64,000 nt of DNA from Malikia granosa (GTDB lineage Bacteria > Pseudomonadota > Gammaproteobacteria > Burkholderiales > Burkholderiaceae_C), in NCBI RefSeq assembly GCF_002980595.1, contig NZ_PVLQ01000020.1:1-64000 (forward strand), in the 5' to 3' direction. Of this stretch, positions 22,582 to 50,680 are shown piece by piece (the first letter of the stretch is position 1; each line of letters begins with the position of its first letter). The notes under the pieces are model-generated. The model did no database searches. It was not told the origin of the DNA and was given only the letters and a program-made list of their open reading frames with translations. Position numbers and translations under genes: made by a program.

Positions 22582-23901
22582 TCAGCGTGGAAACGGGCCC
22601 CAGTTCGGTTCCCGGATGTCGCCGGGCACGCTGGCCAGCCGGGTCTTGATCTGGCCGTCCAGGGTGGTGGTCATCAGGGCCTCGCGGCCGCCGACCTTGG
22701 TGGCGTACATGATCAGGCGGCTGTTGGGCGCGAACGTGGGACGCTCATCATCGCTGGTATCTGTGACAGATGCGATATTACCGCTACTGAGTTCCATCAC
22801 TTGCAGCTTGAAGGCGCCGCCAACGCGCGTGATATAGGCCAGCCAGCGGCCGTCGGGGCTGATGGCGGGCGAGATGTTGTAGCTGCCGTTGAAGGTGACG
22901 CGCTCGGCGTTGCCGCCGCGCGCGGGCATGCGGTAGATCTGCGGCGAGCCGCCGCGGTCGCTGACGAAATAGATGCTGGCGGCGTCGGGACTGAACACGG
23001 CCTCGGTGTCGATGCCGCCGGTCTGGGTCAGGCGACGCGGGTTGCCGCCGCCGTTGGGGCTGATCTCGTGCACCTGGGAGTTGCCCGACAGGGTCAGGGT
23101 GGCGAGCATGCGGCTGCCGTCGGGCGACCAGGCCGGCGCCGAGTTGGAGCCGCGCCAGGTGGCGACCGGGCGGCGGTGGCCGTTGGCGATGTCGTGCACG
23201 TAGATGACGGGCTTGCGCGCCTCGAACGAGACATAGGCCAGCTGGGCGCCGTTGGGCGACCAGGCCGGCGAGATGATCGGTTCGTTGCTGGTCAGCGCGG
23301 CCTGCGCGCCTTCGCCGTCGGCGTCGGCGACCCACAGGCTGTAGCGCGCGCCGCTCTTGGAGACATAGGCGATGCGGGTCGAGAACACGCCCTTGAGGCC
23401 GGTGAGCTTCTCGTAGACATAGTCGGCGACCTTGTGCGCGGCCAGGCGCAGGTCGGCGGCGGCGACCGGAAAGCTCAAGCCGCCGAGGTCCTGGGCTTTC
23501 AGCGTGTCCCAGAGCCTGAAGCGCACGTCGAACTGGCCGTTGGCGAGCCGGATCACGCTGCCGGTGAGCAACGCGTCGGCGCGTTCGCGCCAGGGGCCGA
23601 GGTCGGGGCGCGAGTTCTCGTCGAGCGCGCCGCCCTGGGCCGCGATCAGGCGGAACAGGCCGCTGCGCTCGAGGTCGGCGCGGATGACGGCTGGCACGTC
23701 GGCGTTCGCGGGCGTGGCGCCCTGGAACGGCGCGATCGCGACCGGGATCTGCTTGGCGCCGACACCGCTGACTTCGACCCGGAACTGGGCCCAGGCGGGC
23801 GCGAGCGGAGCGACTAGCAGTCCGGCGCCGGCCAGGGTCAGCAGGCTGCGGCGTCGGCCCGAGGCCGGGGAATGGTCGTCAGGGCCCGAAATCTTCATCA
23901 T
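22582..23901 (-). CDS. tolB: Tol-Pal system protein TolB
   Basis: 439 residues. The N-terminal signal contains RRRSLLTLAGAGLL and ends near PAWAQ, which is Tat-like in character. An N-terminal alpha/beta domain (about 30-165) precedes a six-bladed beta propeller. The propeller repeats are visible as SPAWSPNGAQLAYVSFE, APAWSPDGSRM, EAVFSPDAASIYFVSD and SPAISPDGRWLAYIT. It binds Pal in the periplasm. Normally tolQ, tolR and tolA lie directly upstream, but here an IS200/IS605-type element does and no tolQRA is present in the window. Expression must therefore come from a promoter in the 70-base gap or from read-through. Confidence 0.95.
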   Translation of the reverse strand: MMKISGPDDHSPASGRRRSLLTLAGAGLLVAPLAPAWAQFRVEVSGVGAKQIPVAIAPFQGATPANADVPAVIRADLERSGLFRLIAAQGGALDENSRPDLGPWRERADALLTGSVIRLANGQFDVRFRLWDTLKAQDLGGLSFPVAAADLRLAAHKVADYVYEKLTGLKGVFSTRIAYVSKSGARYSLWVADADGEGAQAALTSNEPIISPAWSPNGAQLAYVSFEARKPVIYVHDIANGHRRPVATWRGSNSAPAWSPDGSRMLATLTLSGNSQVHEISPNGGGNPRRLTQTGGIDTEAVFSPDAASIYFVSDRGGSPQIYRMPARGGNAERVTFNGSYNISPAISPDGRWLAYITRVGGAFKLQVMELSSGNIASVTDTSDDERPTFAPNSRLIMYATKVGGREALMTTTLDGQIKTRLASVPGDIREPNWGPFPR

Positions 23902-23954
23902 GCTGCGGCTTGGGGGATGGACTGCGTCGTGGAGGGTTTAGCGGGTGCGCCAGG

Positions 23955-24130
23955 GCACCGCCCGGAATGGTTTGACATCCTCCCCTGCCTAAAGGCAGGG
24001 GATTCCTACGGCGCGGAGGGGCATGGCGCCTGACTCCGTCGCTTCGGTGGGTTCCTGCTTCACCGAGGCGGCACGCCTGGCCCTCGCGGGCCGGGCTTGA
24101 CTGACTGCCTCTCCACAGGCTGCAACGCGG
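23955..24130 (-). ncRNA. Candidate omega (guide) RNA of the TnpB element
   Basis: TnpB nucleases of IS200/IS605 elements are guided by an RNA that covers the 3' end of tnpB and the right end of the element. Here the expected region includes the terminal hairpin at 23982-24001, and the guide would begin just beyond the GTCAAA end, reading CCATTCCGGG on the minus strand. The exact limits are an inference from the family; no promoter or processing site is visible. Confidence 0.35.
23982..24001. repeat. Terminal hairpin of the IS200/IS605-type element
   Basis: An 8-bp perfect stem CCCCTGCC/GGCAGGGG with loop TAAA, overlapping the tnpB stop codon. Such subterminal hairpins are the recognition structures of TnpA and also part of the guide RNA scaffold. 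Confidence 0.8.
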
Positions 24131-25269
24131 TGTCCCCGCGCCAGTATGTTCATCGCGCCGACCACATCGGCGTTTTCCTCGTAACCGCATGCCACGCATG
24201 CGAATTTCGCTTGCGTGCGCCTGTTGTACGCCGACACATGGCCGCAGGCGGGACAGGTCCGGCTCGTGTTCTGTGGCGGCACGGCAATCAGCAGCCCCCC
24301 GTTCCAGGCCAGCTTGTAGTCGAGCTGGCGACGAAACTCGAACCAGCCCTGGTCGAGGATGACCTTGTTCAACCCCGACTTGGCCCGGACGTTCTTGCCC
24401 GGCTGCTCGCTGCTGCCGACCGCCGACTTCGACATGTTCCTGACCTGCAAGTCCTCGATGCACACCATCGCGTGGTTCTGGCTGATGGCGCTCGTAGCCT
24501 GGTGCAGGTAGTCGCGGCGGACGTTGCCGATGCGGACATGGAGACGCTGGATTCGGGCCTTGGCCTTCTTCCAGTTGCTGCTGAATTTCACCTTGCGGCT
24601 CATGGCCCGCTGGTAGCGGCGCAAGCGCGCCTCGTGCTTCCTGAAGCTGTTGAGCGGCGCCAGGTAGCTGCCGTCGCTCATCGTGGCGAAGCGGGCAATC
24701 CCTACGTCGATGCCAATGGCGCTGCTCGATGCTGGCACAGGCGGCTCGACTTCGCGCTCGGTCTGGATCGACACGAACCATTTGCCGCCAATGCAGGACA
24801 CAGTGGCGTTCTTCACTGTCCCGAGCACCTCGCGGCTGTCGCGGTAACGCAGCCAGCCGAGCTTGGGCAGAAAGAGGCGGCCATTGGCTCGATCGAGCTT
24901 GATCTGTTTCGGATCGGGGTAGCGAAAGCTCTCGCGCTTGCCCTTCTTCTTGAAGCGCGGGAAGGCCATGCGCTGCGCAAAGAAGTTCTGGTACGCCCGA
25001 TCCAAGTTCTTGAGCGCGTGTTGCAACGGGTGTACGGGTGCATCCTTGAGCCACGGCGTCTCGCTGCCATTGCGCCACGCGGTCAGGTGCTTGGCCATCG
25101 CCACATAGCCGATGAACTGGCCGCCGGCCTCGTGATTGGCCTTCTGCAACGCCAGCGCCTGGTTAAACACAAACCGGCACGCCCCGGCGAAGCGGCGCAT
25201 CTGCCGCGCCTGCTCGCCGTTCGGGCGCAGTTCGTACTTGAATGCCTGGAGGCGTCGCATAGTCTCCAT
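23989..25269 (-). CDS. tnpB: RNA-guided endonuclease TnpB (IS200/IS605 OrfB)
   Basis: 426 residues from the ATG at 25269 (METMRRLQAFKYELRPNGEQ, the usual family opening); the longer frame upstream runs into the tnpA relic. The N-terminal part with FNQALALQKANHE is followed by RFKKKGKRESFRYP. The three RuvC motifs are intact: D in GIDVGIARFATM (about 188), E in VCIEDLQVRNMS (about 271) and D in ENADVVGAMNI (about 368). A zinc ribbon with two CxxC pairs, CPACGH and CVACGY, lies between the last two. The nuclease should be catalytically competent. The tail after residue 385 is rich in Arg and Ala. Since TnpA is dead, the element can move only with help in trans. Confidence 0.93.
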   Translation of the reverse strand: METMRRLQAFKYELRPNGEQARQMRRFAGACRFVFNQALALQKANHEAGGQFIGYVAMAKHLTAWRNGSETPWLKDAPVHPLQHALKNLDRAYQNFFAQRMAFPRFKKKGKRESFRYPDPKQIKLDRANGRLFLPKLGWLRYRDSREVLGTVKNATVSCIGGKWFVSIQTEREVEPPVPASSSAIGIDVGIARFATMSDGSYLAPLNSFRKHEARLRRYQRAMSRKVKFSSNWKKAKARIQRLHVRIGNVRRDYLHQATSAISQNHAMVCIEDLQVRNMSKSAVGSSEQPGKNVRAKSGLNKVILDQGWFEFRRQLDYKLAWNGGLLIAVPPQNTSRTCPACGHVSAYNRRTQAKFACVACGYEENADVVGAMNILARGHRVAACGEAVSQARPARARRAASVKQEPTEATESGAMPLRAVGIPCL

Positions 25270-25282
25270 TATAGTTTGGCCT

Positions 25283-25593
25283 ATGAGCCAAGGAAGCGAT
25301 CTTCGACGCGGGAGACACTGCGTATTCCTGATGCATGTCTGATCGAGTTCGACGGCGAGGACGACCATGTCCACCTGCTGGCGAACTACCCGCCCAAGGT
25401 AGCTGTATCCTCACTGGCGAAGAGCCTCAAGGGCGTTTCCAGCCGCACGATCCGCAAGAAAAACTACCCGACCATCCGCAAGAAGTTGTGGGGTGATGCA
25501 CTGTGATCTCCCTACTATATCGTCGGTAGCTGCGGCGGTACACCCATCGCCGTCATACGACAGTGCATCGAGCAACAGCAGACGCCGCACTGA
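25283..25593 (+). pseudogene. tnpA: Remnant of IS200/IS605 TnpA (Y1 HUH transposase)
   Basis: Three lesions are visible. The first 19 codons (MSQGSDLRRGRHCVFLMHV) match the N-terminus of TnpA. An internal deletion of perhaps 35 codons then joins them out of frame to IEFDGEDDHVHLLANYPP, the segment with the HUH histidines (HVH). Near 25504 a TGG codon has become TGA, before the sequence SPYYIVGSCGGTPIAVIRQ. Finally the position of the catalytic tyrosine (normally KQYIEQQ-like) reads RQCIEQQ, that is, Tyr to Cys. No active transposase can be made. It is transcribed divergently from tnpB, 13 bases apart. Confidence 0.85.
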
Positions 25594-25667
25594 TCGCCCC
25601 AAGGACACCTTCGGCGTCCGCGCTTTCCTTCGCCGCCCTAAAGGATAGGGTTTGACGCGCATCTCGA

Positions 25668-27182
<1,515 letters not shown>

Positions 27183-50400: not shown

Positions 50401-50476
50401 TGGGGTGGCTGATGGGACTCGAACCCACGACAACAGGAATCACAATCCTGGACTCTACCAACTGAGCTACAGCCAC
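50401..50476 (-). tRNA. tRNA-His (anticodon GTG), copy 1
   Basis: The minus strand begins GTGGCTGTAGCTCAGTTGG. The anticodon loop ATTGTGATT gives GTG, the T-loop is TTCGAGTC, the acceptor stem GTGGCTG pairs with CAGCCAC, and CCA is encoded; 76 bases. It is identical to the second copy 128 bases upstream on the same strand. Confidence 0.96.
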
Positions 50477-50499
50477 CACGGCTGACAATCTATCGATGA

Positions 50500-50525
50500 A
50501 AAAAGCCCGAAGGACCGGGCTTTTT
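50500..50525. terminator. Terminator of the second tRNA-His
   Basis: AAAAAGCCCG, six-base loop, CGGGCTTTTT. It lies between the two tRNA-His copies and ends the transcript of the upstream copy on the minus strand; very similar to the terminator at 50347-50371. Confidence 0.85.
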
Positions 50526-50604
50526 CGTTTCGCTTCACAAAGCGCCCCAGTAGTATCTTGCGACTGACTTGCTGGGAATCGCGTTTGCGAATGCCGGGAA
50601 TTCT

Positions 50605-50680
50605 TGGGGTGGCTGATGGGACTCGAACCCACGACAACAGGAATCACAATCCTGGACTCTACCAACTGAGCTACAGCCAC
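50605..50680 (-). tRNA. tRNA-His (anticodon GTG), copy 2
   Basis: The same 76 bases as copy 1 without any difference, including the CCA end. It lies downstream of ppiD on the minus strand. Each copy has its own terminator. Confidence 0.96.

What the first reader, a model, noticed from the sequence alone, without database searches (positions are those of the whole stretch)
23971..25656. Intact TnpB nuclease kept beside a triply broken TnpA
The TnpB has all three RuvC acids and both zinc CxxC pairs, whereas TnpA has an internal out-of-frame deletion, a TGG-to-TGA stop and Tyr-to-Cys at the catalytic position. An element that cannot transpose by itself but keeps its RNA-guided nuclease is either very recently dead or under selection for another role of TnpB, such as homing-like retention, regulation or defence. 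The end hairpin overlapping the tnpB stop and a predictable guide start give a testable guide RNA.
Basis: partly seen in the sequence, partly recalled or inferred. Interest (0 to 1): 0.68.

Follow-up and report, generated by a model that had tools for sequence, protein, structure and literature searches.

The report
Crippled IS605 element with intact TnpB
A small bacterial jumping gene in a Malikia genome has a wrecked transposase and a damaged recognition end, while its RNA-guided DNA-cutting enzyme and guide RNA look intact and selected; this is a common fate for this kind of element and fits the enzyme's known job of keeping the element at its site.

Summary
Window 23972-25666 is an IS605-type element inserted exactly 3' of TTGAT at the rng stop codon; sister species G167 has the clean empty site. 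tnpB (23989-25260, minus, 423 aa) keeps RuvC D185/E269/D365 and four zinc cysteines. tnpA (25283-25593, plus) has a 106-bp out-of-frame deletion, a stop at a conserved Trp and Cys for the catalytic Tyr. On the window branch tnpB omega is 0.105 (background 0.116; omega=1 rejected), tnpA omega 0.37-0.44 (background about 0.045; omega=1 not rejected). The 89-nt guide-RNA core has no window-private change and forms 18 of 18 pairs. The left-end hairpin has lost 2 of 8 pairs. So the nuclease module was kept while the mobility module decayed. This is not rare: 39 of 77 related loci with an open tnpB and readable upstream DNA have a broken or undetected tnpA. Best reading: a decayed IS605 copy whose TnpB does its published job, cutting the empty TTGAT-guide site. 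I found no support for regulation or defence. Known kind; modest interest.

The parts
23972..25666 (-). IS605-type element, 1695 bp (left end at 25666, right end at 23972)
   Evidence: Empty site in G167 (CTGCTTTGAT|ACCATTCC) against the filled site in the window
25667..25671 (-). TTGAT, insertion target and predicted TAM; its TGA is the stop codon of rng
   Evidence: same TTGAT left of copies L037, L038, L047
23989..25260 (-). tnpB, 423 aa, intact frame of an RNA-guided nuclease
   Evidence: omega on its own branch 0.105
25283..25593 (+). tnpA remnant: 106-bp internal out-of-frame deletion, stop at a conserved Trp, catalytic Tyr replaced by Cys
23972..24060 (-). omegaRNA core (89 nt) overlapping the tnpB 3' end, with the right-end hairpin
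   Evidence: 18 of 18 pairs formed in the window; covariation in 33 other sequences; 0 of 89 window-private changes
24061..24130 (-). probable 5' part of the omegaRNA (extent uncertain)
   Evidence: Sub-threshold Rfam hits RAGATH-18 24052-24119 and HgcC 23964-24081; hairpin with covariation
23956..23971 (-). predicted 16-nt guide ACCATTCCGGGCGGTG, outside the element
   Evidence: Right end TCAA fixed by the empty site; 16 nt as in the ISDra2 constructs of PMC8612924 (passages)
25625..25656 (-). left-end hairpin region, decayed (6 of 8 pairs; -3.4 against -9.7 kcal/mol for L037)

Best explanation
This is an IS605-type element inserted 3' of TTGAT at the rng stop codon, just upstream of tolB (insertion site shown; arrival after the split from G167 is the simplest reading). 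Its transposase gene and its left-end hairpin have decayed, so it probably no longer moves (lesions shown, immobility inferred). tnpB and the omegaRNA stayed intact, tnpB under purifying selection averaged over the branch (shown). TnpB should cut DNA carrying TTGAT followed by the guide, that is, an allele without the element, and repair from the filled copy would restore the element (inferred from published ISDra2 and plasmid work). The selection is therefore most simply selection for element retention or homing, partly exercised while an ancestor still moved with a TnpA of its own or of another copy.
For: Empty site in G167, no element between rng and tolB in G245 and G051. tnpB omega 0.105 on the window branch against 0.116; omega=1 rejected, values of about 0.055-0.20 not rejected. 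tnpA omega 0.37-0.44 against 0.044-0.047. 168 of 170 TnpB columns conserved at 95% or more are kept. omegaRNA core identical to L037 and covarying in relatives. Left-end hairpin damaged. In G245 a copy with intact tnpA (L047) exists besides copies L037 and L038 in which no tnpA was matched. In G058 five tnpB copies without adjacent tnpA sit at five loci. Element dS to the three nearest G245 copies 0.36-0.43, host tolB dS 1.04. In a plasmid study the advantage of element-bearing plasmids needed the TnpB RuvC site and not TnpA catalysis (PMC11870625, passages).
Against: No other IS200/IS605-type TnpA was found in the draft genome, so excision, the usual trigger for TnpB retention, should not now occur there. 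Branch omega is an average that includes earlier homes; by my arithmetic tnpB could have been neutral for about a tenth of it. The tnpA and tnpB omegas compared directly differ only modestly (intervals overlap near 0.13-0.20). Raw counts of window-private changes are alike in tnpB (53 of 1269) and tnpA (12 of 306), by different criteria; the difference lies in the kind of change. The link between weak left-end hairpins and lost tnpA is not significant across copies. tnpB also decays beside intact tnpA in relatives. No expression or cleavage data.
Confidence: 0.72

Rival explanations
1. Recently dead relic: tnpB is intact only because too little time has passed, and nothing selects it now.
For: No TnpA found in the genome to mobilise it; insertion seen in one species only; part of the low omega may predate arrival, since the branch includes earlier homes.
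Against: tnpA looks neutral over about a third of the branch by point estimate (0.34, wide interval) and the left-end hairpin has four private changes, while tnpB shows no relaxation and the omegaRNA core no private change.
Confidence: 0.2
2. TnpB has been recruited for a host role (regulation of rng-tolB, or defence).
For: tnpB lies between two co-directional genes, rng and tolB, so host transcription could express it (no sigma70-type promoter match in 23800-25800); tnpB is conserved.
Against: The three other Malikia genomes with a tolB match lack the insertion, so no long-term retention at the site is seen; nuclease residues intact; guide is the flank; no exact viral match.
Confidence: 0.03
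3. Trans-mobilised element: the copy was moved here by TnpA from another copy, and its tnpA was already broken when it inserted. This concerns how it came here and is compatible with the best explanation.
For: G245 carries a copy with intact tnpA and copies without matched tnpA that have TTGAT and complete ends at other sites; G058 has tnpB copies without tnpA at five sites.
Against: At present no TnpA was found in the genome and the left-end hairpin is damaged. Among the tnpA matches printed (up to three per locus) only the window has the pieces 1-19 and 52-138, so no second copy with this deletion is known to have moved.
Confidence: 0.35

Closest known systems
ISDra2 (IS605 group, Deinococcus radiodurans)
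   Same: Y1 TnpA and TnpB, TTGAT target, related TnpB (E 9.4e-56 to 8bf8); TTGAT and guide rule from PMC8612924 (passages)
   Different: Here tnpA is broken and the left-end hairpin decayed; nuclease activity untested
IS1341 group and IS605 decay copies
   Same: TnpB and IS ends without a working TnpA; PMC9956272 (passages) classes copies with Y1-derived sequence as decays of IS605
   Different: This copy still carries a large tnpA remnant, so by that paper's rule it is an IS605 decay, not IS1341
RAGATH-18-derived reRNAs of IS607 TnpB
   Same: TnpB guide RNA; weak Rfam similarity, 30.7 bits against a gathering score of 44.9 (paper PMC11061315, listing with start of abstract)
   Different: Below threshold; the host element here has a Y1 transposase remnant
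TldR regulators (recalled; PMC13418256 seen as listing with start of abstract)
   Same: TnpB-derived proteins used without transposition
   Different: Nuclease-dead RNA-guided transcription factors (deadness recalled); here the RuvC triad is intact

Membership tests
IS200/IS605 family, IS605 group | Y1 HUH transposase gene in the element | tested here: met
   The remnant matches PF01797 with 75.1 bits, over the cut-off of 23, though it is broken
IS200/IS605 family, IS605 group | Insertion 3' of a short target without target duplication | tested here: met
   Empty site in G167, TTGAT
IS200/IS605 family, IS605 group | Subterminal hairpins at both ends | tested here: inconclusive
   Right-end hairpin complete, left-end hairpin decayed
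IS200/IS605 family, IS605 group | A working transposase of its own (needed for an autonomous member only) | tested here: not met
   tnpA has three lesions; mobility itself not assayed. It is filed as a decayed member, not an autonomous one
TnpB (OMEGA nuclease) | RuvC triad and zinc-finger cysteines | tested here: met
   NF040570 guided_TnpB 362.4 bits against a cut-off of 100
TnpB (OMEGA nuclease) | omegaRNA at the right end with the guide outside the element | tested here: met
   Conserved, covarying RNA by sequence; expression not testable
TnpB (OMEGA nuclease) | RNA-guided cleavage next to the TAM | not testable with these tools
   Needs an assay
IS1341 group | No Y1-derived sequence in the element | tested here: not met
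   tnpA remnant present
TldR | Loss of RuvC catalytic residues (recalled) | tested here: not met
   D185, E269, D365 present

The most novel reading that the evidence does not exclude
After the element lost both its transposase and a usable left end, the TnpB-omegaRNA pair kept being selected at this fixed site as a stand-alone allelic homing drive, converting element-free alleles that arrive by recombination, with no transposition involved.
Probability: 0.2. Interest if true: 0.6.

Novelty: new member of a known kind. Interest (0 to 1): 0.36.

Why it matters
It is a natural case in which the parts of one element can be scored apart: what serves only transposition (tnpA, left-end hairpin) has decayed, and what serves the RNA-guided nuclease (tnpB, omegaRNA) has not. 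That bears on why TnpB genes are often found without a working TnpA. The empty site, TAM and guide are fixed, so the nuclease can be tested directly.

Tried and rejected
Host role: looked for the insertion in the other Malikia genomes. tolB was matched in 4 of 5 genomes (G299, 84% complete, had no match), and the three besides the window's own show no element there. Viral target of the guide: 0 exact matches of the 21-base TTGAT-plus-guide in viral contigs. Second genomic target: none exact for TTGATACCATTCC; with up to 3 mismatches over 20 bases, the element's own right end and one other place, C130:26085-26104, which has TTGAT and three mismatches in the guide part; that place was not followed up. 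Trans-acting TnpA in the genome: the second Y1 match (C141) is RayT-like. Rfam: only sub-threshold hits; no TnpB RNA at gathering score in 12 relatives. Promoter scan of 23800-25800: 0 found, 0.4 expected. Plasmids: 12 records match, none covering 80% in one place. A paper search for TnpA loss with purifying selection returned 0. Structure prediction was not run.

Results against my reading. Among 17 loci with tnpA at 64% identity or more and no stop (L172-L188), tnpB was open over at least 365 aligned residues in 9 (one of them only 24% identical), cut by the contig end in 1, broken or partial in 5 and not seen in 2 short loci; so tnpB decays too. The 80 loci were chosen by tnpB similarity, which favours open tnpB, and are not independent; 3 of 80 were dropped from the count (L080, short tnpB frame; L082 and L114, contig ends), and two of the 77 counted are the G245 copies L054 and L057 (the same as L037 and L038). 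'Undetected' tnpA means no tblastn match at E 1e-3 to two queries. L046, with a broken tnpB, was left out of the codon and RNA sets. The fold of the whole 159-nt RNA region is only slightly better than shuffles (z -1.9; 8 of 200 shuffles at least as good). In one search the 20-base stretch misjudged L061 and L071, whose stems have a longer insert; with 36 bases shows them paired. In one search the window left end folds at -5.5 kcal/mol by another pairing, and 6 of 16 copies with lost tnpA against 1 of 13 with open tnpA are weaker than -6 kcal/mol (Fisher p 0.09), which is not significant. One fold (L041) was offset and is not used.

Full report
What is there. The window is G000:C76:1-64000 of a 3.83-Mb draft genome in 162 contigs. 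The genus is Malikia (Comamonadaceae): the same-genus genome G245 has a contig of the same length and tnpB match as the record of Malikia sp. STC_66. Between rng (25668-27182, minus) and tolB (22582-23901, minus, gene names from their sequences, recalled) lies an IS605-type element. The relative G167 has the undisturbed site: minus strand CTGCTTTGAT followed by ACCATTCC. In the window the element stands exactly between TTGAT and ACCATTCC. The element is therefore 23972-25666, with TTGAT at 25667-25671 and the right end finishing in TCAA. G245 and G051 also lack it at this site; G299 gave no tolB match. Copies in G245 at other loci have the same TTGAT and the same ends.

The two genes. tnpB is open over 423 residues, matches guided_TnpB with 362.4 bits against a cut-off of 100, and is related to ISDra2 TnpB. 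Its RuvC acids and four cysteines are present in 87 of 88 aligned sequences, the other row having a gap; of 170 columns conserved at 95% or more the window departs at 2.

Selection. I fitted codon models with a separate omega for the window branch. For tnpB (9 sequences) omega is 0.105 against 0.116 elsewhere, and omega=1 is rejected (2dlnL 31.5); values of about 0.055-0.20 are not rejected. For the tnpA remnant (9 sequences, 101 codons left after dropping the gap and the stop) omega is 0.44 against 0.044 on a topology that I set, or 0.37 against 0.047 on the FastTree topology; equality with background is rejected (p 1.2e-4 and 1.7e-4) and omega=1 is not (p 0.35 and 0.17). A direct comparison of the two window omegas is weaker, because their intervals overlap near 0.13-0.20. 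Raw window-private change rates are alike in the two genes (53 of 1269 and 12 of 306, by different criteria); what differs is the share that alters the protein, besides the deletion and the stop. The averages cover the whole branch, including time at earlier sites.

The guide RNA. The 3' end of tnpB doubles as RNA. The exact 9-base block GCAGGAACC is found in 76 of 88 loci, read in one frame in 43, a second in 32 and the third in 1; 12 lack the exact block. So it is the nucleotide sequence that is held. In 33 other sequences (of 34 non-redundant ones; L078 left out) a structure of 18 pairs is formed in 94.8% of cells (shuffles 81.2%, slid versions 38-53%), with 70 cells changed on both sides against 23 in shuffles. 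I set that structure from the RNAalifold result, whose 51 sequences included the window, and from the end hairpin, which favours the unslid version; the window was not in the counted alignment and forms 18 of 18 pairs. The 89-nt core is identical to that of L037 and has 0 window-private changes, against 4 of 73 at the left end (Fisher p 0.039). Rfam gives only sub-threshold hits, and the whole 159-nt region folds only slightly better than shuffles (z -1.9).

The left end. The left-end hairpin, which TnpA needs (recalled), has 6 of 8 pairs against 8 of 8 in L037 and L047, and -3.4 against -9.7 kcal/mol for L037 over 32 bases; the right-end hairpin, shared with the omegaRNA, is unchanged at -10.7. 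All four private left-end changes lie in that hairpin. Over 36 bases the window folds at -5.5 by another pairing; all 13 copies with open tnpA form a stem of 7 or 8 pairs there, but the contrast with the 16 copies without open tnpA is not significant (p 0.09 at best). So decay of this end is shown, and immobility is inferred.

How common it is. Of 80 loci returned for tnpB, 77 have an open tnpB of at least 370 aa and readable upstream DNA. In these, tnpA is open and full-length in 38, full-length with a stop in 2, a fragment in 17 and undetected in 20. Thus 39 of 77 share the window's situation, in a sample chosen by tnpB. In a sample chosen by tnpA, tnpB was broken or partial in 5 of 17, so loss is not one-way. 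In G245 one copy with intact tnpA (its tnpB runs off the contig) coexists with copies L037 and L038 in which no tnpA was matched. In G058 five tnpB copies sit at five loci with their left ends close upstream and no adjacent tnpA; four of equal length are 93.5-99.3% alike, and the fifth is 89.8% alike to L164 over 1425 bases. So tnpB-only elements have moved, presumably with TnpA from elsewhere (inferred).

History. tnpB differs from the three nearest G245 copies by dS 0.36-0.43 (the fourth, L038, by 0.93), while host tolB differs by 1.04 between the same species. The nearest copies are younger than the species split, which suggests horizontal transfer (inferred). G000 has no other tnpB match, no other omegaRNA match among the two of four candidates scored, and no other IS200-type TnpA match.

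Function. Published work on ISDra2 shows RNA-guided cutting next to TTGAT and proposes that TnpB restores the element at the donor joint (PMC8612924, passages). A plasmid study reports that the advantage of element-bearing plasmids is lost when the TnpB RuvC site is inactivated and not when TnpA is (PMC11870625, passages). This gives a reason for TnpB to be selected without TnpA. The guide here would be ACCATTCCGGGCGGTG. It has no exact TAM-flanked target in the genome or in the viral collection, as expected for a nuclease aimed at the element's own empty site; one TTGAT-flanked place with three guide mismatches exists. The G167 empty site shares only the first 8 guide bases (read by eye).

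Verdict. The decay is selective, and tnpB plus omegaRNA were kept. The likeliest account is the published retention/homing function in an element that has otherwise died. A host role is unsupported. Whether selection continues today at this site cannot be told from one genome per species.

Noticed in passing
window 25667-25671 and 23901-23971: The insertion keeps the rng stop codon (its TGA is part of TTGAT) and separates rng from tolB, which lie about 50 bp apart in G167; tnpB is co-directional with both, so read-through expression is likely.
   Followed up: partly
L064 1948-2114: A Pseudomonas fluorescens copy of the element family lies within 1 kb of a C4 antisense RNA with its targets (Rfam, above gathering score), which suggests a prophage.
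   Followed up: no
G051:C27:56176-56268, G213:C53:18024-18113: omegaRNA-like ends beside only a short 3' piece of tnpB: guide-RNA ends that outlive most of the nuclease gene.
   Followed up: no
G000:C130:26085-26104: A TTGAT-flanked near-match to the guide with three mismatches, a possible off-target in the same genome.
   Followed up: no
window 50401-50680: Two tRNA-His genes (GTG) close together on the minus strand.
   Followed up: no
L164-L168 (G058): tnpB copies at five loci whose shared left-end sequence starts at TCAC rather than next to TTGAT, apparently a different target in a related element.
   Followed up: partly
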